Shown here piece by piece: positions 6,401 through 63,881 of a DNA stretch of 64,000 nucleotides. The stretch is from positions 496,001-560,000 of the forward strand of contig JAFCMP010000530.1 of assembly GCA_017506865.1 (NCBI GenBank), written 5' to 3'. A model generated the notes under the pieces. That model was not told the DNA's origin, made no database searches, and was given only the letters and a program-made list of their open reading frames with translations. Position 1 is the stretch's first letter. Each line of letters opens with the position of its first letter. Both the position numbers and the translations under genes were made by a program. Origin of the DNA: Tribonema minus. Taxonomy: Eukaryota > Sar > Xanthophyceae > Tribonematales > Tribonemataceae.

Positions 6401-9400
6401 CGCAGGCCGTGTTCCCGCCCAAGGACAGCAACCCGCGGCGCACGACGACGCTTGGCGAGAAGTTCCGGCGCGCGCTGCTCGACCTCATGGCGCTCGTGGA
6501 CGCGTGCGAGCCGTGGTACATCCGCTGCATCAAGCCCAACGACCAGAAGGCGGCCAACACGTTCAACGCGAGGTGCGGCGACGCGCGCGCGAACGACGCA
6601 CTCCCCTCCACCCCCCAAAACCCCCCCGCTCCCCCCCGCGGCGGGGGCGCTGGCTGGCGACTTGTCTCACACGTGACCTTCATGTGTGCTCGCGCGTGTG
6701 TTGGTGGACGTTGCGGCGCCCGTGTCAAGCCCGTGACGCATGCGGCGTCGCAGCCATAACATCATGCCAGTGAAGGCGGCGTGAGCCGACGCCTTGAGGT
6801 TTGCCCTGGTCAGCGCATGAGGCGCCTACATGCGCGCGCCCAACGCCACAACTTCAAGTTGCACTGCAACGCTCGCCTTTTGCTGTCCTCCCGTTCATCT
6901 CATCGCCCCCCCCCCGCATTGCAATGATTGCGTAGCGGGATGCGTGCGACGTGCTCTCATGCAAAAATTGCCGGCGCGCGTCGCACCCCCTGCTGCGCGA
7001 AACACGCGCGCCGGCGGGCCCCCTCTTCTCACCGTAACCCCCCAATACCTACCTAACCCCCCAATACCTACCTACCTTCGCCCCGCTGCGCGACAGGATG
7101 TGCATCGAGCAGCTGACGTACGCGGGCGTCTTTGAGGCAGTGGCCATTCGCAAGACGGGCTACCCCTTTCGCCTCACGCACCGCCGCTTTGCGAACCGCT
7201 ACCGCTGCCTCGCGTACAAGCCGGGCGTCGGCTGGGCGCCGCTGGGCGCGCGCCGCGACGACTGGCGCGCCATGTGCGCCGCGCTGCTCGGCTGCGTCAA
7301 CCAGGACTTCTCGCGCGTCCAGATCGGCGCGACCATGGTGCTGTACAGGTGGGTAGGGTAAGGGTTAGCAGACGCTCGGGGGTAGGGTAAGGGTTAGCAG
7401 ACGCGGTTCGCGCGAGCATTGAGTTGTGGTTGGCGCGCCGGGTGCGCCGCGCTGCTCGGCTGCGTCAACCAGGTCTTCTCGCGCGTCCAGACCGGAGCCA
7501 CCATGGTGCTGTATAGGTGCCAGAGCGCGGGGGCTATGTAGGGTTACGGTCGTTAGCAGACGCGGTTTGCACGCGCGTTGAGTTGAGGTTGGCGCGCCAT
7601 GTGCGCCGCGCTGGTCGGCTGCGTCAACCAGGGCTTCTCGCGCGTGCAGATCGGCGCGACCATGGTGCTGTACAGGTGAGTGCGCGCCTTCGCTCTGCGA
7701 GGCCTGAGCCCTGCTGACTGAAACACACGCACGCATGTGTACATACAACAACCATTCCCCTCTGACATGCGCGCACGGGTTCCCCCCCCCCGCCCCCCCC
7801 CTCCCCCACATCCCACCTCCCCCTTTCAGGGCCGAGGAGCACCGCATCCTGGAGCTGCTGCGCAACCTGTGCCTCGAGCGCGTGCTGCCCGTCGCGCAGC
7901 GCGCCGCGCGCAAGCGCATCGGCCGCTCGTTCCGCCGCTGCATGCGCCAGGCGCGCGCCATCTGCGCGGCGGCGCTGGCGGCGGGCGCCGCGAGCGACGC
8001 CGCCGCGCTGCGCGCCGCCATCGCGCGCGCGGACGCCGCCGCCGCGCCCGCCAAGGCGTGCTTCTCGTGGGAGCCGCCGGAGATGGTGAGCGCGCAGCTA
8101 GGGTCAGAATTAGACTACACCCTAACCCTAAGAGGTGTACTAAGTAGGTCAGGACCTGCCATCAGGCTAGTGCTGGCGGACGAGAGAGACTCGCTGTGTT
8201 GTTGTGGCCCGCGGCGCCTGCGTCAGTTCACGCAGAGGCTGTGAACAGTCAGCATCCGGCGCACTGGCGGCGCCCCGAAGCGTGGTCGTCGGCCAATGCG
8301 AAGGCAGTGCTGCTGGCACCTGTCTTAACGATACACCTGCGTGCACCGTGCGCCACGCCGCCACGACGCCACTCGATTCCCGCCCCCGCTTCGCTGAGTA
8401 GCGCCGCCGCTGCCGCCGCCGCTGCTGCCGCTGCCCCCCCCCTCCCCGCCCCCCCCCCGCAGGTCCACTGCAAGGAGCTGCTGTTTGCGCTGAGCGAGCG
8501 CGAGGCGCTGGTGGGCGTGCTGCGCGGCCTGCTCGCGCGCGACCCCGTGCAGTGCTACGGCGAGCTGCGCGCCGCCATCGCGCGCTGCAACAAGATACGG
8601 CACCTGCCCGGTGAGAGCGAGTTGGAGAGAGAGCGGCGCGCGGGGCACGTCGGGTTCGCTCGTTGCGCGTGCGCGTGCGCGCATTTGCGCTTCACAATGG
8701 CGAGACGCCGCTGGCGGAGTTCGATCAGATGGATTGATGGCGGTCGTAGACTGTTCAGTGCGAGGGTGTGTCCCGTCGTCAACTAGGAATGAGCCGGAGT
8801 CGACCGATGGTGCGTTGATAGACTGTTCAGCGCGAGCGCGCTGTCAACCGAGTCAGAATCGGAGTCAGAGTCCGCTCGGGGCACGTGCAAGTGCAGCGGC
8901 TGATCCACAGGCTTGGCCAGGTGCACGACGAATGCCTGCAAGGCAGTGCTGCGCCTCGCCGCCGACGCTTCAAACTGCGCAGTCGCTTCACCCGCCGCCC
9001 GCGCCGCCGTTGCCCCTCCGCGCAGGCGCGACGCACGAGCAGGCGTCGCTGGAGCAGCAGGCGCGCGCCGTGCTGCAGCACGCCAGCGCCGTGCGGCTGG
9101 ACCCCATCGCCGACGAGGCGCTCGCGCTGCTGGAGCGGCGCGTCATGGAGGAGGTATGTGTGCATCATGTGCACCGTTTATTTCTTTGAATGGGGGTGGG
9201 GCGGGGGGGGGGGGGGGGGTTGAGACTTTCCAGGTCCTGCAAGGGCGGGAGGGTTATGTTGAGGGGGGGGGGGGGGGGAGCGTGGGGCAGGCAGGTCGCC
9301 AGAGGCTGAAGTCAGCATGCAGGTACTTGCATGCCTGCGTATGTATGTACAAAGTTTTGCAAGTATATGAGCCTGCCCCGTTGGCACCCCCCAGGCTGCC

Positions 9401-11709
9401 GTTGACCAGGTTCTCCTTTGCGTAGGTGTTGTACGCTGTGACTACCCTCTGCCCATCCCCAACTTCGTTTGCTGATGCACCACCTGTCGCTTGCAATCAA
9501 AACGCATCCTATGCCTCACTCATCTGCCGTATTGTTGCCCTGCCCCCGCCCAACACACACCCTCAAACACCTTCGCCACTGCACACACACTGCCACGGGG
9601 GCCAGCGGCTGCCGAGCGCTGCGCCCCTGGCCGCAGTTAATCGGATGACTGCGCAGCACACCCATCCGCGCCTCGCCTCCCCCCCTCCCCCCACTTCCCC
9701 AGCTGCCATGTGTCGCCGTTACGAGCACGCATGTACGTGCATAGACAAGTAGGTAGCGTTCTACATAACTCAAACTTCAAGTATCATCTGTTCCAAAATG
9801 CAGGCCCCGTTTGCACCGCACGCCAGCACTTCCCGTTGACCCCCCCCCCCTCCCCCGCCCTCTTGCCAGGTCGTTGCGGACGCGGCGGCCGCAGAGTGTC
9901 CATACATGCATAGGCAATAGGCATCTATGTACATCAATCATCTCCGTCGGTCAGAATGCAGGCCGTGTCGCACCATGCGCCAGCACATCCCATTCACACA
10001 CACACACCCCTCCCCCCTCCCCCCTTTCCAGGTCGTCGCGGAGGCGGCGGCCGCCGAGTACGACTCGCCCGCGCTCGCGGAGGTGCGCCGCAAGCTCGCG
10101 CTGCCGGAGGCGGAGTTCGTCGCGCTGCAGCTCGAGGTCGCGCGCGCGACCAACGACCCCGCGCGCGTCGTGAACCGCCAGATCAAGCTCAAGGAGATGT
10201 ACCTTGACGCGAACGCGGGCGCGCTCGCGCTGGGCGCGCTGCCCGCGCTGCGCGACGCCGAGGAGTGGGCGGCGCTCAAGCCGCTCAAGACGCTGGCGCT
10301 CGGCAAGAAGTCCAAGGCGGACCTCGCGCGCGGGTTCTTGAGCCACACGACGGAGCCGATACACAAGTCGCTGCTGCGCGTGAGCGGCCTCAAGGGCGAG
10401 GCGCTCAAGCAGTTCAAGAACCTGCTGGGGTACGCCGGCGACCGCAAGTACCAGTACCCGGACCCGCTGCTGCACGAGATCGTCGCCAAGGGCCTCGAGG
10501 TGCGTCCGCTGCGTTTGCGCCGCCGCTGCCGCGGCTGCCTGCTCTGCAGCTGTCGCCGCCATTCGTGCTGCTGCTGCTGGTGCTGCCCTTGCCCTCGCCG
10601 CATCTATCGCGGTACCATTCCACTGTCCTGTGTGAGGTTGAAGTTGCGCAAGCGCGCTGGCCGTGTCGCTCTAGCAGACGCACGCTGGCGCAGCGCCTGC
10701 TTGAGCGCCGCAGTCTGGGCATTACAGCAGCAGAAGCCCACTGCCAGCCGCCCGCAACAGCCCCGCCGCAGCGGCTCTTGTCCCCCACCGATCTTGAGTG
10801 GTCCTCGCCTGAGGCGCTGTTGCATGCCTGAAAGCTGTGCCCTTAATGAGTTGCTGCGTGCGCCGCACATGCTCACTCCGGCCGGGCCTCACATCATTCC
10901 TACTTGAGGCGGGCGCTTACCCCCCCCCCGCCCCCCCCCTCTCTCTCCACCCGCGCCCCCCGTTCCCCCTCCCCTCCCGCGCCCAGGTCCCGACGCTGCG
11001 CTCCGAGCTGTACGTGCAGGCCATGAAGCAGCTCACCGACAACCCCAATCCCCAGTCGGAGCAGCGCTGCTGGGAGGTGCTCATGCTGCTGCTGCACACG
11101 TTCCCGCCGCCGGAGGACGTAGAGAACTACGTGCACGCGTTCGTGCGCGCGCGCGCGCCCGCGGGCCAGCGCGACAAGCTCAAGCTCGCCGTCCACATGT
11201 CCGTCGTGGAGGGCGCGAAGGCCGCGGCGCCGCCCGAGCGCGAGATCCCCGCGATCCTCGGCGCGTTCTTCGACCGCGCCATCGAGCCGCGCTACAACAT
11301 CGAGCAGGACGTCGTGTCCGCCGCGCCGCCGCCGCGCCGCGCCGAGCGCGCCGGCTGGGGCGCCGCCGCCGCCTCCGCCGCCGCCGCCGCCGCGCCCGCG
11401 CCGACGCCGAGCCCGTACCAGAACGGCGCCGCCGCCGCCGCGACGCCCTACGGCGCGGCGGCGGCTTCGCCGTATGCGCCCGCGGATGCTGCGCCGCCGC
11501 TGCCGCCGCCGCCGCTGCCGCCGAAGCCGCCGAGCGCGCCGACGGCGCGCGCGCTGTACGACTACGACCCGGCGGGCCAGGCGGGCATGCTCGCGCTGCG
11601 CATGGGGCAGGCGCTCGTCATCAAGGACCGCGAGGGCGCGGACTGGTGGATGGCGGAGACGGAGGGGCAGCAGGGCTGGGTCCCGGCGTCGTACGTGCAG
11701 CTGACGTAG
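445..11709 (+). CDS. Unconventional myosin heavy chain: GYF-WW-motor-MyTH4-SH3
   Basis: Actin-based ATP-driven motor, complete in the window. Exons: 445-621, 818-1762, 2116-2364, 3028-3240, 4547-4700, 5135-5347, 5617-5873, 6406-6572, 7097-7348, 7830-8085, 8463-8610, 9026-9153, 10032-10499, 10987-11709. All introns are GT-AG, phases agree throughout, and the total is 1449 aa. Residues 1-55 are GYF-like ([21 protein letters not shown]). A WW domain lies near 119-149. The motor (about 205-876) has P-loop GESGAGKT at 314-321, switch I NNNSSRFG at 363-370 and switch II DIFGFE at 583-588. The TEDS-rule position, 16 residues before DALAK, is Asp532, which suggests the motor needs no phosphorylation there. 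A basic helical neck (876-960) has no clean IQ motif. MyTH4 spans about 1145-1290; a Pro/Ala linker leads to a C-terminal SH3 ([20 protein letters not shown]). I see no FERM domain. The tail suggests membrane or microtubule cargo binding plus Pro-rich partners. The start follows from the GYF reading frame. Confidence 0.93.
1788..1828 (+). repeat. Telomere-like degenerate TTAGGG run in myosin intron 2
   Basis: About 25 bp after the donor of exon 2 the sense strand reads as irregular units of TTAGGG, ATAGGG and GTTAGGG. Similar runs lie in other myosin introns near 2953-2972 (CCCTAA sense), 4228-4241, 7352-7395 and 8096-8131 (both orientations). None falls in an exon. Confidence 0.8.
2380..2483 (+). 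repeat. GCT/GCC trinucleotide tract in myosin intron 3
   Basis: An imperfect (GCT)n/(GCC)n run starts about 15 bases after the exon 3 donor GTGAGC. The same kind of tract follows the donor at 26541 in the PH/CH gene, and the hexamer form follows a ferlin donor near 46362. It is intronic and not translated. Confidence 0.7.
7261..7677 (+). repeat. Triplicated 3' edge of myosin exon 9 with its donor site
   Basis: The last ~85 bp of exon 9 (7261-7348) plus its GT donor recur at about 7431-7516 and 7589-7677. The copies encode the same peptide edge with a few substitutions ([39 protein letters not shown]) and each ends in AG followed by GT. The repeat unit, ~160 bp, also carries intronic GGTAAGGGTTAG-type sequence. 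The first copy is continuous with the upstream exon and is taken as the real one. Confidence 0.88.
9798..10056 (+). repeat. Duplicated acceptor edge of myosin exon 13
   Basis: The end of intron 12 and the first codons of exon 13 (acceptor at 10031) have an upstream copy at about 9798-9905. Both contain an AATGCAGGCC stretch, a CGCCAGCAC stretch, a C-rich tract and CCAGGTCGT followed by the VVAEAAAAE-coding start (VVADAAAAE in the upstream copy). The upstream copy loses the exon sequence after about 10 codons. Confidence 0.8.
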
Positions 11710-12734
11710 CGCGGGCGGGCGGGCGGGCGGCGGTGGCGGCAGCGGCAGCGCCGCGTCGCGTGCGCAGGGGCGGCGCGTTTCGAGGCCCGTGCCCGCCACG
11801 GGGCTTCTGTGGCGCTGCTGGCGCAGCAGCGGCGACGGCGCCGCGCGTCCAGCTTCCGTCTGATGAGCTTTGCGTTTGCGAGGTGCCGCGGCGCACGGCA
11901 CGGCAGGCGGCGCACCCCTGCACAAATGCAGTGCGCGTTCGCCGCGCTCACCGCGCGGGCTTTTGTACGCGGTGACGCAGCGCGGGGTGGTGCTGCTGTA
12001 AGTGCGTGAGAGTGCGTAAGCTCCTATCGTGGCGGATGCTCAACACGTCACACCAGGTGGGCGCGATGCGCACTTTGTGCATCGCACTTCGCGTGCGCAG
12101 CGCTGCTGCCGTCCGGCAGAGCAGCAGCTCAGCGGACTCGAGTTTGTGTCTGCAGGTGCGCGTGCGTTCCGCTCGCAGCACCGCGGGTGCTGAACAGTTG
12201 TAAAAGCGATTTGATTGTTCCCCCTCCCCTTGATGTTGGCCTCTGCGGCGAGGCAACGTGCCACTGCCGACTTCCACGGCTGGCATAATCCTCGCCGAGA
12301 GAGCATAACGTTATGATGTTGTGTCTGCGCATCGCACCTGTGGATTGGCAAGTTAAATGGCACGGCGTGAAAACACAGTGCGCGGCTGCCTCTCCCTGCG
12401 TGTTTGCCGTTGTCGTGTCCACATGCCGTGCACTGCCTCTGCGGCACTCATCGCTGTCAATGCATCCATTCCCCTGACTGCCACTCAGAGCTGTCGACAA
12501 GGCATCCACCTGCCCCTTGACGGCATGACAGAAACCCAAGCAGCTGACCGCCCTTGGGCCCAAGTTTCAAACGCGCTCGGCTGTGTGGCTGCACATTTGT
12601 CTCGAACACGCTGCAGCTCGGCGGCAGCGCCAGACGCATCAACGTACCAAACACCTGTTTACATGTAGTGACACACGAGTCCTCCCATGGTACTGCAGTG
12701 AGCGGTTGCAGCCTTGCATGACTGACCGTCTAAG
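11710..12734. other. 3' flank of myosin, no gene seen
   Basis: Runs from the myosin stop to the start of repeat copy A. I see no conserved protein or RNA gene. The open frames here are compositional shadows. Confidence 0.5.
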
Positions 12735-19084: not shown

Positions 19085-22000
19085 GTGTCATGCCGCAATG
19101 CACGCGCCATAGAGTCACTTGCAGGCTCAATGTCCCCGACTGCATCTATCATGTGTTTGCAAACACGCCCATGCTCCTCTTTCAGTGTCAGCTCTCTCAG
19201 CGTGACTGTGTACTTCAACCACAGCAGCACCAACAAGGAGCCGATGCTGCAGACGGGCCCGGGGGGGGTGGGGGGCAGCGGCCATGGCAGCGCCAGCGGC
19301 AGCACCCACAGCGCGTCCAACGGCGGTGGTGGCGGCAGACCGCTGTCCGCCGCCGCCTCCGCCGCCGACAAGCTCTCCGGCGGCGCGCGCTCGCAGTTCA
19401 CCATGCACGGCGAGGACGACCAGGAGCGGCTGCGCGCGCTCAAGACGGGGTACCTCATCAAGCGCCCGTCGCTGCGCAAGCGCGGCAACGGCATCAAGCT
19501 GTGGTCCGGCGGCAAGCGCAAGTTCTTCGTCCTGCGCGGCGGCTCGCTGAGCTACCACAAGGACCACAAGAGCGTCGACGACCCCGCGCACTCGCGCGAG
19601 GTGCTGCTCACCGAGGACTGCGACGTCGAGTACTTCTACGACCCGCCGGGGGCGCCGTTCGGCCTGTGCGTGGCGGCGCCGGGGAAGGTGCGGCGCGCGC
19701 GGTCTGGGCTCGGGGGGTGTCCGCGCACCGTTTGGGGCTGTGGCGCATGGCAGTATCGGGCAAACCGACGCATGTGCTATTGGGAAGTGTACACGGGGTG
19801 CCTATATGACCTGCCGATGGCGCCGTCTGGGCAGTGCGGCGCGGCGCCGGGAAAGGCAGGGCGCGCTGCTCGCGCAGCACGCTGTGTGCACTGCGGGCGA
19901 CGCTGCAGGCGTACACGCTGCTGCACGCCAAGCAGCAGCGGCGGCTGCTGCGCACTGCGCCGAGCGGCGCATGCGCAGATGCTGCGTCGTGCGCGGCGCT
20001 TGAACACCCAAGTCAACGGCCTCCGCCGAGCTCCGCGTCATGAAGCAATGCTCAAGAGCGGTCTCATCAGTCAGCTGTTACGGAGTGTGCATCAGCTACC
20101 TGAGGAACTGCTGTTGTGAAGCGCGGGTGCTGGCTCAGCAGTAGGCGATGCAGCATTGGGCCACACGCATAAGCTTCATCGCTGTGGCTCAAATATTGTG
20201 TAAAGTGATTTCTGCCCTTCAGTGCCAGCAGCCCCCTCGCAGCGACACCGACAACTTGATAGACCAGCAGTCAATAAACACTGCAGCATGCATGACACTG
20301 CAGCACGCGGAGCGTACACAGTTGCAGCTCCGGCGTGGCAGTTCTCAGCTGACGGGCACTGGCTGCTGCAAATCCTGCGCTCGCTCTCGCACGAGCAGGT
20401 GTTGCAGCTGGTGGCGCGCGACGTGCTGGAGCGGCAGGAGTGGAAGGACGCTATTTGCATGGTCATCAATCAGGTGCGCGTACGGAATTGTGGAAGGTGC
20501 CGCCACAATGTTGTGGGCGGCGCGTCAGGACGCTGCTATCGGGACTGTCACAACATGCGTTGTGCAAGCGCGTATTGCCTGCGACACGGGCGCGAGCTCA
20601 GAGCGCTGCGCCTACACGTGTGTGCGGGACGGCGGCGATGCCGCTGAAAGGGCGCACCACTGCCCTCAGTTGCCATGACGCCACAAAGCGCGTTGTGATC
20701 CCGGAATGCTTGCTGTGCCGTTGCGCGCGTGCTCTGCAGGTGCGGCAGACGACGCGCGGCTACCTCGGTAAGCGCAACGCCGGAGCGGGGCTGTACACGG
20801 GCGGCGGCGGCGGCGGCGGCGGGGGCGGCGGCCGGGGCGGGGGCGCCGGCGCGGCGCACAGCGCGGAGGAGGACGCGCTCTGGGCGCGCAAGTACTTCAT
20901 ACTGAGCGGCGTGGAGCGGCGGCTGACGTTCCACGTGGACCACAGGTGAGCGTGCAGCAGCGCTCGGCAGCAGCGCTCAACAGTGCTGCGCGTCGCCGCT
21001 TGGGGTGCACGTTTGGTTGCTGATGGGGCCGGGGGTGGCGTTCGCACGCGCGCGCAGCGGGCGCGTCTCGATGAGCGGAGGCGGTGCGCGACATGGCCTT
21101 GGTGGACTGCAGGTGCGGTGTGAGCTTGCGCATTTGGTGCTGATGGTCTATTGTGGCGCTGCGTTACAGACTAACCTGTAGTCGATGGTGGCGGCGCAGC
21201 CACCCAGACACATCGGGGGGAGGGGGGGGGGCTGAGGCCGGCAGTACATGGGAAGTACTTCCATTTGATTGCTGGCTTCGTGCAGCCACTGCAGAGTTGA
21301 AGTGTTCTGCGCGTTGCGAGTTGAACGTGTTGGCGCAATCACAGCCAGCTGCCGCAAGTTGTGAGCCGCAGCCAATTGCGCGCAAGTCATCGTCAGAAAT
21401 CGCGTCTGACGTGCGCCGTGCGCCACTTCTGTCCCGGCCCGCCACTTGAGCAGCTTCCATGACACCTGCGTACAATGCTATGCGCCAAAAGTGAACACGC
21501 GCATCAATCGTCAGGACCCTTCAACGCGAGCGCTACTGAGTGCAACGGTTATACTTCAAGTACACAATGCAAACAGCTGAGCTGGGTGACACGCTAATTC
21601 CAGCAACATTAGCGTGACAGTAATTCAACACGTGCAATGTCGTGAGAGGCACGCAGAATGCGGTCGTGAGAAAGATTTGTGTTTGTTGCCGCCGCTGAAA
21701 GCGCTTGTTTGAAGTAAGGGCCGCTCTTGGAGTTCACTGTAGAATTGACATTCATTGATGGCACGTCACGCCGTGTCCCTTGTGCCTTGCACTGACGTTG
21801 GCATGATCTTGTGAACGTCGTTTTGAGCGCCGCCATTACGTATGCGCCTGCAGCTGCGGATGCATTTCAGGCTGACTGGCTGCTGTTTGGGAACATAACA
21901 ATACTTGTTGCTTAGTTGGGCCTGCTGCATTGAGTGGCGTTTTTGCCTTTCGTGTGCATCTTTGCAAGTATGTTGACCGGCAGCAGCGGCAGCAGCAGCA

Positions 22001-25000
22001 GCGGTAGCCATAATAGCACAAGCAGCAGCAGCACGAGCAGCGGTAACGCCCACAGCAGCACAGCTCGCAGTGGCCGCTGCAGCTGCATAGCGGCAGCTGC
22101 AGGCTTCTTTGTTGCACCGGTGCTGCTGATCAAGGGCCGCTGCAGCTGCTGAGGCAGGTGGTCCAAGACCGCTGCTGCTGCCGCTGCCGCCGCTGCTGCT
22201 GCTGCCGCCGTCGCACCGCTGAATCAACCAATGCTGTGTCGCTGCCCGGGTGGCATCAAGCGCCGCTCACTGATGGTTCTGCAACACGTGATTACAAAAG
22301 GCATAGACGTCGAACCGGCGGCGGCCCCGCTCGCTGCGCCGCAGTTCGCTGTGCTGGCGCGCTGCACTGACAGCGCCGCGCGCCCGCCGCGCCGCGCCTC
22401 GTTCCCTCCCCACGCGCAGCCACGCCCTGGCGGCGCAGGGCTCCTTCCCGCTGTGCAAGGACACGTCGATAGAGAAGAAGCCCAACAACGTCGTCGCCCT
22501 CAAGACGGGCGAGAGCTGCCTGGTACGTGGCTCAATGCCTCCGTTGTTGTTACCTAGCGAGCCTCATCGGCTTTGTGAGAGAGCACGTGCGCGCGCGAGG
22601 TGCTGTCCAGTGTGTGCCCTGCGCCGCTCCCGCCACCGCCGCAGAGCGCGCGCCTCGTCTGGCTTTGTAAGCGCGCTTGCGCCCCTTCTGGCTGTCTCCT
22701 CCTCCTTCCCGCACTTCAATCTGTGGCGCATAGCAGGGCCCGCGGAACGCGGCTCCTGTGCCCTGTCTGCTTCGCTCAGGTTGTGCAACGGGCGGGCAAA
22801 GCCGCCATGCACCTGCCGCTCCCCTGATCACCGTGGACCGTGTTGGCCAGCACTGCGCGTCGTCCTGAGGAGCGACGGTGCTCACGCAGCGGCGCTGGAG
22901 GCGTGGTGTCTCCGCACATTGCGTCCTGCGCAGAGATGGTAGCGCACGGATTGACAGCGCCCAGATGCTGCAATGCATTGCGGTACGTCATTGCCACGTG
23001 CAGTTGGCGCCGACCAACGCACCCCACCTTCTTGAGCATTGCCACGTCCAACAAAGAATGCTGGCCGAAGCACCTCAGTGCATGCGTGGTGCGCCAGCCG
23101 GTACATGGCGGGCACCGCTAGCGTCCACTGGTTATTTTAAAAGCGCGAAGCGACTTAAAGCGGGCCTTTTTGTTGGCTGCGAACCCGCGCAGATGTGGCG
23201 CGCGGACGACGCGCAGGACTGTCAGCGCTGGATCGCCGCGATCGCCGCCATCATAACGGACGCCAAGCGCGCGCAGATGCTGCAGGCGGCAGCGGGCGGC
23301 AGCACGCCCATGGCGGCGGCGGCGGTGAGCGTTCGCGAGTTGTTAAGGCGGCGGCGGCGGCGGCGGCGCGGGCGTGTGCGCATGCATGCGCGCCCGCAGA
23401 TGCGCTGCGAGGCATGAACAGAGCACATGCAGAGGCAAGAGCGCTTGCGGCATCGCCGCGGCTCGCGCCTGTCGCAGCTGCGCTCAGGATCCTGGACGGC
23501 AAACGTGCAGGGGCGGCAAAGCTGGCGCAGCGCACACACCTGTGGCGCATCTAGCGGTCGACCTTCGAGCGTCACCGCAGTTGGCCCAGTGCGCGACCCG
23601 AAGCGCATCTGCACACGATGGTCGTGCTGCCGCCCCCCGCCCTCTCTCCTCGCGCCCCCGCACGCTGCAACGCTCCGACATTGACCCATCGAGCTCCTGA
23701 GCCGTGACGATCATCGCGTCCCGGTCTCTACCCCCCTGCCTCCCCCCCCTACCCCCTCAGAGCTCCTGAACCGTGACGATCATCACGCCCCTGACTCTCT
23801 CCCCCTTGCCCCCCCCCCCCCCTCCCCCTGTCTCTGCCCCCCTCTGCCCCCCCCCCCCACACCCCCTCTGCCGCAGCGCTGCGAGCTCGGCGCGGCGCTG
23901 GAGCCGCTGCACGAGGAGGGCGAGCCGCTGGAGGACGGCGGCGGCAGCGGCGGCGGCGAGCGCATGCGCGGCTACCTGCTCACGCGCAGCGTCGCCGGCA
24001 GCGCAGGGCGCAACGGCGTGAGCGAGGCGTGGCTGCCGAACCACTACGTGCTCACGGGGAACGCGCTGTACAGGTGCGCGGGCGCGCATCGCAGCTGCTG
24101 CCGCGGCGAGGGATTGTTGTGGGTATCTACGTTGCTCCGAGGACCGTCCTGCGCGAGCGCGCAGCGCGGCAGAGGCTGTGCTCGCGCACGGGTGGCCGCG
24201 TATCTCAGTGAGTCAGAGAGTCGGGGTCGGGGTCAGCATGGGGGCCGGGGCTGGGGTTGGGTCAATGGTCAGAATTTGGGCCACCGGCGCAATCACAGCG
24301 TTTGGCTGCGGCAGGCTGGCGGGCAGTGCGCGCCGCGACTGCGCCGCGCTCACCGCACGCCTCTCGGCGGCATCGCTGCGAGGGGCGCGGCGGCGCGCGA
24401 GTGGCACGCGTGGCATCGCCGCAGAGGTTGCCCCTCGCTCGCTTGGAACGGGCTCGTGGGGTGGTCTGCGCACGCGCGCTGGTGTGCGTGGCACGTCACA
24501 GCTCGCCCTGCAGCGCGGCCGGCTGCCCCCTGGCACCAGACGTAGAAGTAGGTTGTGATGCGGCGCGGCGGCGGTGGCTGGATATCGCCCGCCGGTAGCA
24601 TTTTGGTGGCGCGCGGCAACGTCTGCCGCCGTTGAGACCACCTGCCTATGACGTCGCCAGCCGAGCGTGTACACCTGATGGTGGCGCCGCCGCAATGTTC
24701 ACATGATCATCTGGAAGAGGGCGTGCTGCACGCCAATGAGCGCTGCTGACGATGTGCGCCGCGTCGCCACTCTCATGCGTCTCACGCCGCCGCCGCCGCC
24801 GCCGCTGCCGCGCAGATACGAGGACGAGCACTACGCGGCGCCGCTGCTGCGCCTGGCGCTGACGCCGAGCTGCAGCGTGTTTGAGACGAACCTGCGGCCA
24901 AACAGGTGAGTGTGCACCTGCGACTCTCTGTAAAAGTGCTGAGCGCTTGCTGTTGATTCTCGGATCTAGGGGTGGCCAAGTGTGTGGCCATGAAGCAAGC

Positions 25001-26557
25001 GCACCGCCACATATGGCTGAAATCAGCTGGTCGCTGGACAGCTGTCGCACCGGGCCTCGCGGAGTCTTGCCGCATTCTGCGTTGAATTGATGCTTGACTC
25101 CCTGTGGCGGCGAGGTTCTGGTTGCGTGTCGCGTAACTGTCAACATCACCGCTTGCGACACGCGCGGTACATCCACCACCGCAGTTCACCGCACCAGCAC
25201 AAGCTTTCAAGTAGTCGCTTACAAGGTGCGCCCACCTGGCGCCTCATGGAGCCGCCATTGACATCCCCTGTCGGCGCGTACACCCTCACTGTGCCCCCGC
25301 CGCCCCCGCCCGCATGCCCCCCCGCCACTGCCGCCACCGCCGCCGCCACTGCCGCGCGACAGCTTCGAGCTGGTGACGGCGAGCCAGGTGCTGCACGTGC
25401 AGGGCGCATCGCGCGCGGTCACCACGCAGTGGGTCGCCGCGCTCAAGGAGGCCATCAGCGTGGTGAGTCTCCGCTAACCCTGACCCTGGCCCTAGGGCCT
25501 GGCCCTGATCTGTGCTAACCTGAGCAAAACCCTAGTCTACGCGCAGCGGGCTGCAGCAGTGCTCAATACGCGTGGGCGGAAGCGAACGCGCGTCGCGTCG
25601 CGACATGCGTTGACATCTCGAGCGTGCAGTGTGCTTGATGTGTGTAGGCTCCGCCGCGCCCGCGCGCTTGTCGACATCCTGCGCATCTTCCCTCTTCCGC
25701 GTCTGCACGCGCCGCCCTGCCTATGCTGCGCAAGCCTGCTAGCGGTGCACGTGAGCTTTGCCCGCCGTCATCGCGTCACGCTCTCACAACCGCTCTAACA
25801 ACATCTTTACGTGAGGCATATTATGGAAATCGCCCCTGCTGTGCGCCTCCAGGCCCCCCCCGACAGCGAGGACCCCCTGCTGGCGGAGGCCAGCCGGCTA
25901 GAGGATGAGTTCTACGAGGTATGTACGTACATGTGTTGTGCTTGTTCAGACGCAGGCATGTATTCTTGCGGCCACACCGCACGCTGAATCCGCACCGCAA
26001 CGCCCCGTGCATGAGTGCTGGCAGCGTTGACAGAGGGGAGTGTGGGGGCCGCCCTACTTCGAAGTATGTGTGTGCTCGCGGCAGCGCGCGCTGGCACATC
26101 TACGCAAACGTACTCAGCCTGACAAGCTTGCGTGCCATTGGCTTGTAGTCTGCTAATGGCGTGCGCAGCAGAGCGCGCCGCTGCTGCCTCTCCCGCATAG
26201 AGAGCGCGTGCATCTCTGCGCATAGCTACCTATGCCGCGATGCCCACGCTCCCTCATCACGCTCAAACCCCCTAAACCCCCCCCCCCCCCCCCCCCCCCT
26301 CGCCCCCCCAGGTGACCTTTGAGAGCAAGCAGCCCCTCGGCGTCGTCCTGGAGCGCTCCAAGGAGTGGGCCATCGTCAAGCTGTCCAACGCGCAGGTGTC
26401 GGCGGTGACGGTCGGCTCGGCGCTGTCGGCGATCAACGGCAAGAGCGTCGTCCTGCGCCCGTACCACAGCACCATCTCCATGCTCACGGCGTGGCAGCCG
26501 CCGCTCACGCTCGTCTTCCGCCGCGCGCCGGAGAAGAGCGGTGAGCGCTGCTGCCGC

Positions 26558-26627
<70 letters not shown>

Positions 26628-29600
26628 CCGTCGCCGCCCCGCGTCGCCCCTGCGCTCCCATTGTACGGGCGTTGCGCGCAGCGTCTGCTGCTGCGCCACC
26701 GCCTCCGCTGGTTGCCACCGCGCCCCAGTGCGCTCGTGTTGTGCTGGCGATGGCCGCCCTCCCTCAGCAAAGAGGCAGGCTGCTTTGCGGAGGGCACTGG
26801 CTGACTAGGGTCTGGGTTGTCGCCTCAACTTCAACTTTGAAGACAATGCGACAAGTGCTCATTGTCACGAAGCCCGTTGCCCTCGCGCGCCCGCCGCCAC
26901 GGGGGCACCGGGCATGTGGCCCCGCATTCTCTGCGCTAGGCAAGCATGTTCCGCTGCCGTTTTTGTCGCCCATCCTATAATCCTACTCTCGACCCCGCGC
27001 CCTCACACACACGACCTCTGCTGCGCACTCTTGCAATGCCTTGTCCCACGATGCCCCATTCCCCCCCTCTTCCTCCCCCCTCGCGCAGGCTGGCTCAAGA
27101 AGCAGCGCTCGCTGTGGGACCGCAAGCGCCGCATGCCGACGGCGCTGGGCGTGGGCGTCGGCGGGGGGGGCACGGGAGGGGGCGCGGCTGGGGCGGGGGG
27201 GGGGCTCGCGCCCGACGGCGGCGGCGGCGGCGACGCGGCGGCGCGGCGCGGGCCGCGGCGGTGGCGCGCGCTCTACTTCATACTCGCGGAGGGGAAGCTG
27301 AGCTGGTTCAGCACGGACGGGCCGACGGCGCGGTTGAGGGGGGTGGTGAGTCATGTTGAAGTTGTGCCTGGTGTTGAAGTTGTGCTGTTGAAGCGCGTCG
27401 CCTGGGGGGGGGCGGGGGGGGGGGCACCGCTCTCGCGCCGCCGCTGCTGCGCGCTGCACCGCCGCGCGCTCGACCCTGTCGGCCGCTATGGCTCCCATTT
27501 GCAGGTGCCAACTGGTACTCATGAGGCAAAGCGCCAGGCGTCAGTCATACATTGAGGAGTACAGCGGAGCAGAAGTCTAACCTAACTCTAACCCTAGTCT
27601 GGCGCAGAGCTTGCAGGCGCTCGTGCGCCAGTAAGCGTAACTGCGCACGGCAACAACAGCGTCTATGTGTGCGCTTCACGAGACATGCCGTCTGAAACTG
27701 CGGTGCATACATGCTGCGTTGCGCACGCGCGCCCGTGCTGCCCGCCTCACCGCGTCCGCCGCTGCCTCCGCTGCCGCTGCCTCCGCTGCCGCGATCGCTT
27801 CGCACCGCAGGTGCCCATGATGGGCAGCGCAGTGAGCCTGCTGCCGTTCGACGCCGTCGGCCAGCACTTTGTGCTGAGCGTTGTGAGCGGCATCACGACC
27901 CTCACGCTGCAGGTATGTATGTACATGCAAATTTAGGGTTAGGGTTTGGGTGAGGGCTCGCCAGGCGGTGTGGCCATGCTTTGGGTCATGTCTCGGGGGG
28001 GGGGGGTTGGGGGGGGGCACGTCGAGCACAGCGGGTGCGCAGATGACCGACGCGGTCTGCGAGAGTGTGACAAGTCTGAGTCAGACTGCAGCTTGTCCCG
28101 CTGGTGTCCTGCGTCCTTTCCTCAGTGGTGATTGTCAGCAGGGAATGCAGTCAGGGACCCCGACCGCCGCCACATCAAGTACTGCCATACATGCATACCC
28201 CAACCGCCGCCACATGAAGTACTGCCATACATGGACACCCCAACCGCCGGCACATGAAGCACGGTCATGCAAGCTCGTAAGCGGGTCATGAAGGCAGCGC
28301 AGCTGTGCATGTGTGTGTGTTCAGCTTTTCTCCGCCATGTTGTCACTGCTCTACCATGGAGGGTGCAATGCATGCTCCTGCAATGATCGATGCGCCGGCA
28401 TCACGACTGCAAAGATGTGCTTCACCAGGTTACGCAGCAGCCATGTGCCATGCGCCTCCAAGGCACTTCACTTAGTACCAGCCCGGCCTCTGCACAAAAG
28501 TGATGACCGTCGCATGCGGCGCTCACACGGGCGACTCTCTGACTCAACTCGTACTCGACTTCGTGACTCTGCCACTCCGCGACGCGCGCGCGCGCCAGGG
28601 CCTGACCCACGAGGACATGCTGGACTGGGCCACGCACCTGTACCACGCGAGCGCCGTCGCCAACGGCGGCGGCTACCTGCTGGAGAAGGAGCGCCAGCGC
28701 GAGCGCGCCTTTGAGGAGGAGCGCGCGCGCAGGGCGCAGGCGCGCGCCGCGGAGCTCGAGGCCGCGGAGAAGCGCCAGGTGCGCCGCCGTTGCCGCGCTG
28801 TTGCTGCCGCCGCCGCCGCCGCTGCTGCCGCCGGCATCAATTGCTGTGTGCGTGCGGTGCCGCTGCGGCGCTGCCGCTGATTTTGCCGTGCAGGGTAAGG
28901 AGTTCAAGTAGGGCGAGCGCGCGGCACACGCGACGGCAGCGCAAGCACGCCCCCAGGCCCGGGCCGCAGAGCAGCAACAAGGGTCAGCCTCAGGGAGGGT
29001 TTAGGGTTAGCCGCAGAGCAGCGACACGCGTCAGCCTCAGGGTAGGTTTACTTTTTAGGGCCAGGATCCGGCGGCAGCGAAGGGGGGGTCGCGCGTGCGC
29101 CCCTCTGCTGGTCAGTCGGCGCCGCTGCTGCCGCTGCCCCCCCCCCCCCTGGCTCGTTTGTTGAAGGTTCAGTGTCAACATCGCTGCTGCCGAGGAGCGC
29201 ATTCGGCGTGCGCACCCGACGCCCGTGCGAAGAGCAGGAGGGACGAGCACCTGAGCATCATCACCACACTACTGCGGCCGCGGGGTGCGGTGTCGGCGGC
29301 GCATTGGCGGGGGGGCGCAGCCGCCTCACGATGATGGACAGCAACACGTGTGTCCAGCAGGCGCGGAGGCACGGCTGGGATGGTGCAAGCCACACAGCTC
29401 AGCACAGTGCCACTCTCCGCTTGAGCGTTGGGGACTGTTGCGTGCATAGTAAGCTCGGTGATGAATTGAGCAGAGAGCGGTCAAGGATGCGCTGGTATGG
29501 GGGGGTTTGTGGAGGCACAGTGTACCGAGACCCCGGCGCCGGCCGAGCGATGCTATCTAAGAGTGCACCTGCTTGTGGCAGTGCTCTGCCCCCGCGTACT

Positions 29601-30688
29601 GACTGTCATTATGCGTGCTAGGTCACAGCATTCACTACAGCTGAGCTATAATATACACACCCATGCCGCAAAACTGGTACAGATGGAGGCGGAGGCGCAG
29701 AAGGCGGCAGCCGCGGCTGCTGAGGTTGCGCGCCAAGAAGCTGTCACCAGCGGCGGCAGCGGCGGCGGCGGCGCCTCACCAGATGACGCCGGCGCCGCTG
29801 CCGATGCTTCCGTGAGTGGGGATGCGTCGGCGGCGCGCGCCGCCAACAATCGGCGCGGCGGCAGCGCGGCGGAGACGGCGGCGGCGGCGGCGCTGGCGGC
29901 GGCGGAGGCAGCGGCGCTTGCTGAGGAGGCGGAGGTGGCGGCGCAGGTGGCCGCGGCGGCGGTCGCGGAGCTGGTGAGTCGTGCGACACGCCTGAGCACC
30001 GAGGCACTGCTGCTGGTGCGCTGCTGCGTCATCGCAGGCCGCGCGTGCCTGTGCCCGCAGGTACCGAGGCGCGCGCGCGTGCCGCGCGGCGTGCATGCTT
30101 GTCTCAAGCGCCGGGCAGCAGCGTGGGCGCACGCAGAGTGCTGCGCCCTCGGTGCCGCACGCGTGGCGTGGCGCGTAGAGCTGCGCACACCTCGGCCGCT
30201 TCTGCTGGCGGCACGCCGGTTTGCGTGGGAGTGATTCCTCTCACCTCACGCACCATCCCCCTCCCCCTGCTGCAGCCGCGTCAGAGGAAGCACGTGATGC
30301 GCGCCACTTTACATGTGTTGCTGCTGCTGCTGATGTTACCCAGCGAGCTGCTCCGTTCCATAGCTGCGCTGCTCTCGCGCTGCTGCGCCGCGCCCGACGC
30401 TCACACGCGCCGCCGCCGGTGCTGCCTGCCGCCGCCGCAGGAGTACGCGCGCGAGCAGGAGGCGGCGGCGGCGTCCGCGGCCGCCAAGCGCAGCCAGGAG
30501 AAGCGGCGCGCGCTCGCGGCGGAGGTCGACGCCGCGCTGCGTGAGCTGCTCGCGCGGCAGACCGTCTCCTCGCGCCACCGCGACGTGCTGCAGCAGCTGT
30601 CCAGCGCCGCCGCGGACAGCCGCCGCGGCAGCCTCGGCGCGGCCGTGGCGGCGCGCGGCTGCAGCAGCGCGGGGACCTCGCCCAAGCC

Positions 30689-30719
<31 letters not shown>

Positions 30720-30965
30720 GGCGACAGCGGCGGCGCCGGCGCGTTCGGCTTTGAGCGCGCGCGGCCGGTGTCGATCGCCGCGCGCACGGCCTCGTCGCGG
30801 CGCAGCTCGCACGCCGCGCGCCGCACGCACAGCATCGACCTGCCCGCGCAAGAGGCGCCGGCGCCGCTGCCGCCGCCGCCGTCCGACGGCGACGCGGCGC
30901 TGCAGGCGGTGGCGGAGGGAGCGGCGGCGGACGACGATGCGGAGGCAGCGGGCCAGGTGCGTATG

Positions 30966-30996
<31 letters not shown>

Positions 30997-33370
30997 TGAC
31001 GGAGGCGGCGTCGACCGCTGGGGCCAGGACAGGTGTTGCATGCATCAGCTGTGCCAGCCAACTAAGGCTGAACTCTGCTTCCGTGGTCAGTGCTGCAGGG
31101 AATCGCCTTGCTGCACGGTCTGGACTCCGCAGCGATTGCATGTTTCGTTGTGGACGCCATTCCCTCACGCGTTTTGCGGTGCGTGGCATGGCTTAGGCTG
31201 AGTCTGAGCAGTGCTGCACAACACGCATAAGGCGTTCGCCCAAGCGACACACCCTCTTTGCCTTGCATGTCAACATGACTCGCAACTCTCAGCCCTGGGC
31301 GCAGCTCATCACTCCCTCGACTCTCGGCTCTACGCACGGCTCACCACCCTGTGACACTGCATGCGCCGTCTTGCGGCGCAGGCGCCTTCTGAACGAGGCG
31401 ACACCAATCGCTTCCGCATAGAAGAGTTCTCGGACGGCGGCGGCGACATCACGAGCACCGAGCCCAACCTTGAGTCGCCGCCGCAGCAGCAGCCGGAGGA
31501 CTCGCGCAGGCGCAGCGGCATCGCGGCGGCGCGTGTCTCCAGGATCAACGTGCCGCCCATCGACGTGTCTGCGCCGCCGCCTCCGCCACATCAGCAGCAG
31601 CAGCAGCAGCACCACGTGCACAGCCGCGCTCCCGCGTTGCTGTACGCGCCCAGCCCCAGCGGCAGCCCCGACGCGGAGGCGCAGCGCGCGGCGGCAGCCT
31701 GCGGCGGCGCGCTGCGTGACTCCCGCGGCGGCGGCAGCGGTGGCGACGCGGCACCGGTGGTGCCGAGCACGCCGACGCGCTACTGCGGCCCGCGCGTCGC
31801 GGACATGGTGCGCATGCGCTCCGCCAAGGGGTCGTCGCTCGGGCACAGCGCGCCGCTGCCCGCGCCACAGCCGATCGTGCGCGACGGCCCGTCGGTCACG
31901 GAGATGCTCAAGCGCATCCGCAGCAGCGGCGACAGCCTCAGCGGCACGCTGTCGGCGGCGCCGGCCGCCGCCCGCGCCGCACCTGCATCCGCGGCGGCGG
32001 CGCCGGCGCCGACCGGCGCGGTGCACCGGGGCGCAGGCGGCAAGTCCATGGGCGGCGGCGCGGTGCTGGCAGCGGCGGCGCGCGTCGCGGCGGCGCGCGC
32101 CGCAGAGTACGCGCGCCTCGCCGACTGGGTCGGCGCCGTCACGGGCGAGCCGCTGAGCGAGCGCGAGGGGCTGGCGACGGGGCTGCGCGACGGCCGCAGG
32201 CTGTGCGTGCTGCTCGATCGCCTCGGCGCGCCGCCGCCGCTGCTGGCGTCGCCGGGCGCCTCGGCGCCACCGCCGCTGGCGCAGTTCCTGCGCGGCGCGG
32301 CGGCGCTCGGCGTCGCCCCCGCGGACCTCTTTGCGGAGGCCGACGTGGCGGCGGCGGGGCCCGCGGCGGACGCGGCGGTGGCGCGGACGCTGCGCGCGCT
32401 GGCGACGCGCGTGCCCGCGGCGCTGCCGCGCTACGCCGGCCCCCTCCCGCGCACGCCGCACGTCGGCGCGCGCGGGACGCTGGCGGAGGCCGCCGCCGCG
32501 GCGGCATCGACGGGGGCGGCGTCCGCCGCAGCGATGGACGGCGACGCGTCCGACGACGAAGGGTCGGTGTCCGAGATGCAGTCGGACTCGGAGTCGCCGG
32601 GGCTGAGGGCGCGCGCGTCCCGGCGCGGTGGCGGCGGCGGCGGCGGCGGTGACGCCGTGTGGCTGACGGACGCGGTGCTGGAGCAGGCGTTCGCGTCGCT
32701 GGACCTGACGGCGCAGAGTGCGCACCTCAACGCGATGCAGTTCGCGTCGCTGTGGCGCGTGCTCACGGGCGAGGAGTCGCTGTATCGCGAGATGGTCGCG
32801 TTCCGCCGTTTCGGTGAGCGTGTCTCGTGTGTCTCCGGCCGTTGCCTGTGCGCAGTGTCTGCGCGCGATCACCGTGTGCGCGCAGGCGGGCGGACATTGC
32901 CCCTTCGTATGCAACTGGCCTCACCCGGACCCCTTTTACGGGCCTGTCACACACTTTGAGCATCACCAACGCCGCCGTCACCACCGCGCCTCTGTCTGAC
33001 CACGACGAGCTCAGCGCTGCGCTCCCGCGTACCGCGCTGCACACGCCGGCGGCCACTTTCGATGCGCAGTCTCAGCGCGTGGCCGCAATGTGCCCGCAGC
33101 CTGCAGCCCTACCTGCACGATTACACTCATCTGCACCTCGACACTCTATGCGCCACCCGCGCTGCCGTCACTGTCACACCTCTGTCCGGCACACGGGGGG
33201 CTGAGCGCTGCCCTCCCGCGCGCGCCGCTGCAGACGCCGGCGGCGACTCCGTCGTGGACCTGGACGAGTTCAAGGCCGGCTTCCGCCTGTATGAGCGCGA
33301 GCTGGGGCCCGAGCACCCCATCCTCATGAACCTGCGCGCGTGGGCAGAGTCGCAGACCGTTTCGTTCTGA
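19085..33370 (+). CDS. Multi-PH, PDZ-like, CH-domain and EF-hand scaffold protein
   Basis: Predicted cytoplasmic scaffold linking phosphoinositide membranes to actin. Exons: 19085-19687, 20399-20473, 20740-20945, 22420-22522, 23193-23324, 23877-24073, 24816-24905, 25363-25462, 25853-25918, 26312-26540, 27089-27345, 27811-27912, 28599-28778, 29683-29973, 30441-30956, 31382-32813, 33234-33370. All are GT-AG with matching phases, 1571 aa. Four PH domains: about 119-226 (TGYLIKRPS to RQEWKDAI), 232-350 (RGYLGKR to CQRWIAAI), 403-502 (MRGYLLTR to TQWVAALKEAI), 601-770 (GWLKKQRS to MLDWATHLYHA, split by a Gly-rich insert). A PDZ-like domain is at 525-600 (PLGVVLERS, SALSAINGKSV). Ala/Glu-rich helices and low-complexity sequence fill about 735-1290. 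The CH domain at 1290-1400 has LADWVGAV and GLRDGRRLCVLLDRLG. EF-hands follow; the last loop DAGGDSVVDLDE keeps positions 1, 5, 9 and 12. The start is uncertain: ATG 19244 or an upstream exon is possible. No named family with this whole layout comes to mind. Confidence 0.85.
19633..19872 (+). repeat. Duplicated donor edge of the PH/CH gene exon 1
   Basis: The last ~55 bp of exon 1 (FYDPPGAPFGLCVAAPGK, ending 19687) and its donor recur at about 19801-19872 as YDLPMAPSGQCGAAPGK. In the copy the donor GT has become GC (AAAGGCAGGG). Confidence 0.75.
23691..23828 (+). repeat. Tandem duplication, ~69 bp, in PH/CH intron 5
   Basis: GAGCTCCTGAGCCGTGACGA at 23691 recurs at 23760 with one change; each copy is followed by a C-rich tract. 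It lies in the intron just upstream of exon 6. Confidence 0.75.
26559..26626 (+). repeat. (GCT)n microsatellite in PH/CH intron 10
   Basis: About 22 near-perfect GCT units begin 18 bases after the donor at 26541. The tract is CUG-rich on the transcribed sense strand. In other frames it gives long poly-Ala, poly-Cys or poly-Gln runs that are not genes. Confidence 0.9.
27930..27957 (+). repeat. Telomere-like run in PH/CH intron 12
   Basis: TTAGGGTTAGGGTTTGGG lies about 20 bp after the donor at 27913. Similar runs in this gene are near 24210-24260, 25475-25535 (CCCTAA-like sense), 27575-27597 (CCTAA-like) and 28999-29010, all in introns. Confidence 0.8.
28156..28268 (+). repeat. Three tandem ~40-bp units in PH/CH intron 12
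   Basis: Units of the form CCCCAACCGCCGCCACATGA followed by AGTACTGCCATACATG repeat three times with a few changes. The function is unknown; probably a minisatellite. Confidence 0.8.
28966..29058 (+). repeat. Two tandem units around a telomere-like core, PH/CH intron 13
   Basis: CGCAGAGCAGC followed by GTCAGCCTCAGGG and a GGTTTAGGG-like segment occurs twice in tandem, about 45 bp per unit. Confidence 0.65.
33006..33256 (+). repeat. Duplicated acceptor edge of the PH/CH last exon
   Basis: The acceptor region and first codons of the last exon (CTGAGCGCTGCCCTCCCGCG, then CTGCAGACGCCGGCGGCGAC at about 33201-33250) have an upstream copy at 33008-33060, where the acceptor CTGCAG reads CTGCAC and the copy diverges after about 15 exonic bases. 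Confidence 0.7.
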
Positions 33371-36698: not shown

Positions 36699-37714
36699 GT
36701 CCAAAAATGTCAATCAAGCACAAAGCCCGCTGCAACCACTCACAGGGAGGACTCGTGCGTAAGGGTCTTGGTCACCATCTATATCTATGTTTAAATGGCT
36801 GGTTCGGTATATTGATGCATCTATTGGTAGCCGTGTGTTCGAAGGCTGCATCTCTTAGGTGGTTGGTGGCGCACACTGCATCACAAACTTAGTCCAGTGG
36901 CGGAAATTCAGCAATTGTGCCGCTGATTGCTGTAAGTAAACTTCAACATCGAGTGCTTACATCCTGCAAGCGAGCTGCATCGATTATGGTTGTGACGCGT
37001 TGTCTTCAGCCCACTATGGGTTTGCAGCAGTGTTTGTAGGATCTGAGCATGCAGTCACCTGTTTTGATGAAGGCAGCAAGATCTCCAGTGTTTTGCTGAA
37101 TGCAATTGATGAAATGCACAGCAAGTCTGCTGTGTGCATGGCGCAGGCACAAATCAATCAGTCCAAAGTAGAGGCGTGAAGGCACTCAAGTCGATGCTGG
37201 TTGTGATTGCATGTTGCGCCGCGCTTGCATACAACATTGCAAACTGCCGTACAGCTCTACAACTGCACCACACAATTGGCCGTCGCATTACAAGAACGAC
37301 AATGCACAGCAAGTCTGCTGTGTGCATGGCGCAGGCACAAATCAATCAGTCCAAAGTAGAGGCGTGAAGGCACTCAAGTCGATGCTGGTTGTGATTGCAT
37401 GTTGCGCCGCGCTTGCATACAACATTGCAAACTGCCGTACAGCTCTACAACTGCACCACACAATTGGCCGTCGCATTACAAGAACGACAACACAGATGTT
37501 CAAATGTCCATGGCGGTGAAGGGCGGTTTGCAGCGCAGGCTGCTGTAGGCCACGCAGGTCGCATTCAACTTCAACTTCACATCAGCATCAACATCAACTT
37601 CAGGTCGTCACGAGCTGCAGTGTGCTACACACGGTAGCAACACAGTACATCTGCACACCTGCCAAGGCATCATGAATCAGCATGTCAACGTGTGCGCTGC
37701 GGCGTCTACCTAGA
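36699..37714. other. Gap between copy B and the ferlin 3' end
   Basis: No gene seen. It contains the 188-bp tandem duplication listed separately and one GTTGAAGTT-type motif cluster near 37565-37603. It should include the ferlin 3' UTR on the minus strand. Confidence 0.45.
37114..37489 (+). repeat. Tandem duplication of a 188-bp unit
   Basis: The unit starting ATGCACAGCAAGTCTGC at 37114 repeats from 37302 to 37489 with no difference that I can see. The identity implies a recent event or an assembly artefact. Confidence 0.92.

Positions 37715-63881
<26,167 letters not shown>

What the first reader, a model, noticed from the sequence alone, without database searches (positions are those of the whole stretch)
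7261..63820. Exon-intron boundaries are themselves duplicated in about a fifth of the introns
In at least 11 of about 54 introns across three genes, a piece of 30-100 bp spanning an exon edge and its splice site recurs one to four times in direct orientation within a few hundred bases inside the adjoining intron. Donor-side cases: 7348, 19687, 63780, 57839, 53804, 48858, 44461, 41785. Acceptor-side cases: 10032, 33234, 60328, 55058, 53956. Many copies keep reading frame and splice dinucleotides. This points to a local tandem-duplication process focused on boundaries, or to boundaries being where such duplications are tolerated. It could create alternative splice sites and drive intron growth. 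I know of no described system with this density.
Basis: seen in the sequence. Interest (0 to 1): 0.86.

Follow-up and report, generated by a model that had tools for sequence, protein, structure and literature searches.

The report
Copied exon edges inside algal introns
In this alga-like genome small stretches of genes have been copied next to themselves, and where a copy includes the edge of an exon it leaves a spare, decaying splice site inside the intron; the pattern is real but looks like ordinary duplication rather than a process aimed at exon edges.

Summary
Observation confirmed: all 13 listed exon edges, in 13 of 55 curated introns, recur in direct orientation in the adjoining intron.

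The reading "focused on boundaries" did not replicate. In the window 12 of 17 testable duplication loci span a junction against 5.3 expected from random placement (P 0.0003). In the adjoining 200 kb it is 7 of 19 against 5.2 (P 0.24), and 7 of 169 modelled introns are affected.

The intronic copies behave as neutral debris. Identity is 93% on the exon side and 80% on the intron side. Exon-side differences by codon position are 33/31/69, 7 of 7 exon-side indels shift the frame, and GT/AG survive no better than neighbouring bases. The constrained exon original slows erasure and so favours detection of boundary-spanning pairs.

Three arrays queried have no second match in the genome, which argues against introners.

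Best explanation: local tandem duplication, tolerated where an intact exon-proximal splice site remains. A window excess beyond detection bias stays unexplained. Introns also carry telomere-like tracts (32 of 32 clusters are intronic), hinting at double-strand-break repair (inferred).

The parts
897..11709 (+). Myosin gene (WW-like, motor, MyTH4, SH3), 13 curated exons
19225..33370 (+). PH-domain gene, 17 curated exons
39148..63881 (-). Ferlin-like multi-C2 gene, 26 curated exons (the 23 exons 63881-41785 read through without a stop; the rest less certain)
   Evidence: 'ferlin' is recalled, Pfam gives C2
7263..7686 (+). Donor-side array: myosin exon end 7348 with two intronic copies (junction equivalents 7516 and 7675, both GT)
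9863..10059 (+). Acceptor-side pair: myosin exon start 10032, copy at 9870 (AG)
19637..19866 (+). Donor-side pair: PH-gene exon end 19687, copy at 19855 (GC)
32949..33248 (+). Acceptor-side pair: PH-gene exon start 33234, copy at 33043 (AC, site lost)
41592..41800 (-). Donor-side pair: ferlin exon end 41785 (GC donor), copy at 41687 (CC, site lost)
44073..44549 (-). Donor-side array: ferlin exon end 44461, copies at 44269 (GC) and about 44099 (GT, seen by eye)
48568..48876 (-). Donor-side array: ferlin exon end 48858, three intronic copies at 48790, 48703 and 48616 (all GT)
53640..53832 (-). Donor-side pair: ferlin exon end 53808 (GC donor; 53804 in the finding), copy at 53650 (GC)
53915..54508 (-). 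Acceptor-side pair: ferlin exon start 53956, copy at 54505 (AG); a second, intron-only repeat lies at 54078-54408
55025..55288 (-). Acceptor-side pair: ferlin exon start 55058, copy at 55273 (AG)
57468..57863 (-). Donor-side array: ferlin exon end 57839, copies at 57729 and 57523 (GT), further degraded ones by eye near 57783, 57655 and 57459
60249..61350 (-). Acceptor-side array: ferlin exon start 60328, copies at 60666 and 60915 (AG)
63453..63806 (-). Donor-side array: ferlin exon end 63780, copies at 63627 (35 bp, 100%) and 63464 (both GT)

Best explanation
Short gene segments are duplicated locally and in direct orientation (best pairs mostly 75 to 200 bp apart), probably by error-prone repair of double-strand breaks or by replication slippage. 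When a segment overlaps an exon edge, the exon-proximal copy still supplies an intact splice site and an unchanged protein, so the event is tolerated, and the extra copy stays in the intron with a spare donor or acceptor. That copy decays neutrally while the exon original is held by selection. The slower decay of the exon half keeps boundary-spanning pairs recognisable longer. Shown: the copies, that the three arrays queried are private to their place, neutral decay of the copies, constraint on the originals, no significant junction excess in the adjoining 200 kb. Inferred: the repair mechanism, use of the exon-proximal site, and absence of a general function of the decoys.
For: 13 of 13 edges verified. 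Junction spanning at the random level upstream, 7 of 19 against 5.2. Exon-side identity 93.0% against intron-side 79.5% in 20 copies at 14 junctions, Wilcoxon P 9e-4. Exon-side differences 33/31/69 of 450/451/446 by codon position and 7 of 7 indels frame-shifting in 25 copies. GT kept in 13 of 18 donor copies (14.1 expected from identity), AG in 6 of 8 acceptor copies (6.7 expected). One place in the genome for each of three arrays. Copies abut within 15 bp at 24 of 51 loci, gap 16-60 at 7, larger at 20. Telomere-like tracts confined to introns and over-represented at duplication loci, 7 of 42 against 2.3.
Against: In the window the junction excess exceeds the simulated decay bias: 12 of 17 against 6.1 with odds times 1.3, P 0.0015; pooled 19 of 36 against 12.3, P 0.010. 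Four exons carry copies at both edges (chance level not tested). At 20 of 51 loci the best copies lie more than 60 bp apart, so simple tandem duplication is not visible there. No transcript, sister species or breakpoint was available.
Confidence: 0.7

Rival explanations
1. Splice junctions are true duplication hotspots, for example because transcription-linked breaks concentrate at exon edges, at least in some genes.
For: Window: 13 of 18 loci against 6.1, P 0.0002, or 12 of 17 against 5.3. Affected introns are concentrated: 9 of 25 in ferlin and 7 of 50 in one upstream model against 4 of 149 elsewhere (my tally).
Against: Adjoining 200 kb: 7 of 19 against 5.2, P 0.24. The window excess shrinks with the required overhang (12 bp: 8 of 18 against 5.25, P 0.08). 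Per point, junctions 12 of 110 against intron interiors 38 of 544.
Confidence: 0.17
2. The copies are kept as functional decoy or alternative splice sites that regulate splicing or make isoforms.
For: 15 of 20 donor copies are GT and score at or above the 5th percentile of modelled donors; 6 of 11 acceptor copies likewise. A whole 132-bp exon with both splice sites is duplicated upstream.
Against: Splice dinucleotides are kept no better than expected from identity; indels shift the frame in 7 of 7 cases; only 2 of 20 donor and 0 of 11 acceptor copies allow an in-frame, stop-free extension.
Confidence: 0.07
3. The repeats are introners or other mobile elements that insert at exon edges.
For: Repeats at intron ends are a known mark of such elements (recalled).
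Against: Arrays at 7261-7800, 48560-48880 and 44073-44549 each match one place in the genome, themselves (only these 3 of 13 were queried). The units contain local exon sequence.
Confidence: 0.02
4. Assembly artefact.
For: A 188-bp unit at 37113-37490 is a perfect tandem copy, and equal-scoring kinase rows on C144, C223 and C278 suggest uncollapsed haplotypes.
Against: The best-scoring pair is 71 to 90% identical at 12 of the 13 junction loci, which mis-assembly does not produce; the exception is a 35-bp perfect match.
Confidence: 0.02

Closest known systems
Boundary-crossing tandem duplication in a potato RdRp gene (Ma, Lan and Niu 2016, PMC4974935; passages seen)
   Same: A local tandem duplication that includes the end of an intron and the start of the next exon.
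   Different: One event in one gene, and it created a new intron; here copies sit inside existing introns in several genes and the reading frame needs no new intron.
[quoted passage not shown] review PMC3443670, passages; Drosophila cases PMC2891723, passages)
   Same: Same mutational step: a local direct duplication carrying splice-site sequence.
   Different: There the duplicated segment is exonic and a new intron results; here the segment spans an existing junction and the intron grows.
Tandem exon duplication with mutually exclusive exons (PMC9741552, search listing with start of abstract)
   Same: One upstream gene has a whole 132-bp exon with both splice sites duplicated, 82% identical over 150 bp.
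   Different: At the 13 window sites only one exon edge is copied.
Interstitial telomeric sequences as break-repair scars (PMC2246262, passages)
   Same: Short TTAGGG tracts inside chromosomes, here in introns and over-represented at duplication loci.
   Different: Described there in mammals by comparison with empty sites; no empty site could be examined here.

Membership tests
Tandem genomic duplication, boundary-crossing type | Direct local duplication that spans an intron-exon boundary | tested here: met
   13 of 13 window sites; copies abut within 15 bp at 24 of 51 loci overall
Tandem genomic duplication, boundary-crossing type | Absence of the copy in a relative (derived state) | not testable with these tools
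   No relative of this genome is held
Intron gain by AGGT exonic duplication | Duplicated segment is exonic and bounds a new intron | tested here: not met
   Copied segments at the 13 sites span existing junctions and lie inside an intron bounded by the original exons
Introners | Similar elements dispersed in many genes | tested here: not met
   Three of 13 arrays queried, one place each
Tandem exon duplication | Whole exon with both splice sites copied, frame kept | tested here: not met
   Window sites copy one edge only; met at one upstream locus, W-177906
Functional alternative splice sites | Copies preserved beyond neutral decay | tested here: not met
   GT 13 of 18 against 14.1 expected, AG 6 of 8 against 6.7
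Functional alternative splice sites | Use in RNA | not testable with these tools
   No transcripts available

The most novel reading that the evidence does not exclude
This lineage enlarges its introns through an unusually active break-repair process whose scars (local duplications, inserted telomere repeats, plastid DNA) pile up in the introns of certain genes; its duplications near junctions leave arrays of near-consensus splice sites, so that splicing must routinely pick the exon-proximal site among several good ones, and in those genes boundaries may be real hotspots.
Probability: 0.25. Interest if true: 0.65.

Novelty: new variant of a known kind. Interest (0 to 1): 0.42.

Why it matters
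It supplies natural experiments in which an exon edge with its splice site is copied beside the original: 20 of 224 modelled introns on one contig. Within one copy the exon half and the intron half act as a constrained and a free clock for the same event, so intron growth by duplication can be dated, and choice between duplicated splice sites can be read from RNA. It also warns gene finders: my own ab initio model turned intronic copies into false exons.

Tried and rejected
Boundary hotspot: not replicated upstream. Selection on the copied splice sites: none detected, although an upstream array (W-159144) had looked core-conserved by eye. Introner origin: disfavoured for the three arrays queried. 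Early gene-finder settings gave either thousands of tiny false exons or fragmented genes; the final one still made false exons out of copies, nine of which I removed by hand before the recount. An uncorrected upstream count (4 of 16 against 3.99 and 5 of 16 against 3.94) was replaced by 7 of 19. Dropped before the count: 15 of 51 loci, namely 6 not inside a gene model (37113 among them), 4 with a whole exon inside a copy, 5 with a copy more than 95% exonic (the myosin locus 7263 among them). With the myosin locus the window figure is 13 of 18. One search lists one more upstream intron (-55136/-55485) whose copies lack the splice dinucleotides; I did not count it. Naming the organism failed: the rRNA search did not complete, and two rbcL-family fragments were not pursued. 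Density in other eukaryotes could not be measured. In my paper searches (open-licence papers only) I saw no survey of junction-spanning local duplications.

Full report
WHAT WAS CHECKED. The window is 64 kb of a 693-kb contig in a 158-Mb, 554-contig eukaryotic genome. I fetched the adjoining 200 kb and trained a small two-strand ab initio gene finder on the 264 kb; its learned splice signals are AG|GTG(A/C)GT and GCAG|G. In the window I corrected the models by hand: myosin, RPAC1-like subunit, PH-domain gene and ferlin-like multi-C2 gene, 55 introns (domains, RPAC1; the name ferlin is recalled).

Ferlin exon 48980-48858 has three intronic copies of about its last 19 bases with the donor; the myosin exon ending at 7348 has two copies, 93 and 96% identical on the exon side. 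Local direct repeats are far above chance: 178 pairs against 3 at E 0.01, 86 against 0 at 45 bits or more (one second-order Markov control).

ARE BOUNDARIES SPECIAL? Each duplication locus was placed at random within the gene models. Window: 13 of 18 loci span a junction against 6.1 (P 0.0002), or 12 of 17 against 5.3 under stricter exclusion of exonic copies (P 0.0003). Requiring 8 or 12 bp on both sides gives 11 of 18 against 5.7 (P 0.003) and 8 of 18 against 5.25 (P 0.08). Its gene models are weaker and were corrected by hand at nine false exons; missing junctions there would hide some cases. A per-point test gives junctions 12 of 110, intron interiors 38 of 544 and exon interiors 10 of 133 in the window; upstream 23 of 200 against 31 of 884, where several of the 23 lie in whole-exon and domain repeats. 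The effect is uneven: ferlin 9 of 25 introns, myosin 2 of 12, PH gene 2 of 16, RPAC1 0 of 2, one long upstream model (ankyrin repeats by eye, perhaps several merged genes) 7 of 50, other upstream models 0 of 119 (my tally; a whole-exon duplication at W-177906 and one doubtful intron at -55136/-55485 are not counted).

WHY THEY LOOK FAVOURED. In 20 copies at 14 junctions with at least 8 aligned bases on either side, identity is 93.0% on the exon side and 79.5% on the intron side (exon side higher in 15, tied in 1; Wilcoxon P 9e-4; per junction P 0.006). Exon-side differences by codon position are 33, 31 and 69 of 450, 451 and 446 sites in 25 copies: 7% at positions 1 and 2, 15.5% at position 3. 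That fits an intronic copy that drifts freely and an exon that changes at silent sites only. All 7 exon-side indels shift the frame. So the exon half of a boundary-spanning pair decays more slowly and the pair stays visible longer. A simple simulation puts this bias at 1.23 to 1.34 fold: enough for the upstream figure, not for the window (12 of 17 against 6.1 at odds times 1.3, P 0.0015; pooled 19 of 36 against 12.3, P 0.010). I put the rest down to choice of a striking window and variation between genes, but a hotspot in some genes is not excluded.

ARE THE COPIES USED? With the splice core masked during detection, copies have GT in 13 of 18 donor cases (14.1 expected from their identity; two of the originals are GC) and AG in 6 of 8 acceptor cases (6.7 expected). 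Many copies still look usable: 15 of 20 donor copies are GT and score at or above the 5th percentile of modelled donors, 6 of 11 acceptor copies likewise. Yet only 2 of 20 and 0 of 11 would give an in-frame, stop-free extension, one of the two with a GC site. Use of the exon-proximal site is inferred from frame and domain continuity, not from RNA.

WHAT MAKES THEM. Three arrays queried match one place each in the genome. Copies abut within 15 bp at 24 of 51 loci, lie 16 to 60 bp apart at 7 and further at 20. Introns also hold telomere-like TTAGGG/CCCTAA tracts: 32 clusters in 264 kb, 32 of 32 in introns, 16 in each orientation, against 0 in four Markov simulations and 0 to 8 for nine other hexamer classes of the same composition; 7 of 42 mostly intronic duplication loci carry one against 2.3 by random placement (P 0.0055). 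TTAGGG arrays occur at a contig start and widely elsewhere (2303 + 3123 overlapping 30-base matches, reversed control 0). A plastid atpH-like fragment (name recalled) lies in a ferlin intron. Such telomere tracts are described as break-repair scars in mammals (PMC2246262, passages). I infer error-prone double-strand-break repair as a likely common source; replication slippage is not excluded.

COMPARED WITH WHAT IS KNOWN. A tandem duplication that crosses an intron-exon boundary is described in a potato gene, where it made a new intron (PMC4974935, passages). Tandem duplication is an accepted route of intron gain (PMC3443670 and PMC2891723, passages). Here the copies lie in existing introns and recur in several genes. 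I saw no survey of this kind in ten searches and could not compare the density with other eukaryotes.

VERDICT. Real and striking in this window; largely explained by ordinary local duplication, tolerance and unequal decay, with an unexplained residue.

Noticed in passing
e.g. window 1787-1821, 7350-7398, 47412-47453, 48391-48425, 63743-63770: Telomere-like TTAGGG/CCCTAA tracts: 32 clusters in 264 kb, 32 of 32 in introns, over-represented at duplication loci (7 of 42 against 2.3).
   Followed up: partly
62200-62520, and AT-rich islands 55972-56435, 59061-59536, 62258-63180: Plastid-like DNA (an atpH-like frame with a lost residue) and further AT-rich islands in ferlin introns.
   Followed up: partly
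W-159339..-159127, W-156090..-155946, W-142552..-142393 (upstream of the window) and window 53956-53808: Four exons carry copies at both edges; whether this exceeds chance was not tested.
   Followed up: no
46168-46352: About 31 units of GCAGCG lie just inside the donor of ferlin exon 46554-46363.
   Followed up: no
37113-37490: A 188-bp perfect tandem duplication outside the curated gene models.
   Followed up: no
53808 and 41785: Two ferlin introns appear to use GC donors; both are among the duplicated junctions.
   Followed up: partly
W-177906..-177544 (L015/L016 region upstream of the window): A whole 132-bp exon of a protease-like gene (papain-like by eye) is duplicated with both splice sites.
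   Followed up: no
W-111303 and W-21555 gene models: Two related genes about 90 kb apart carry tandem copies of a domain containing RPHARDCGTTPELCDC.
   Followed up: no
G000 contigs C144, C223, C278 and C90, C179: Equal or nearly equal kinase matches on different contigs suggest uncollapsed haplotypes or recent duplications.
   Followed up: no
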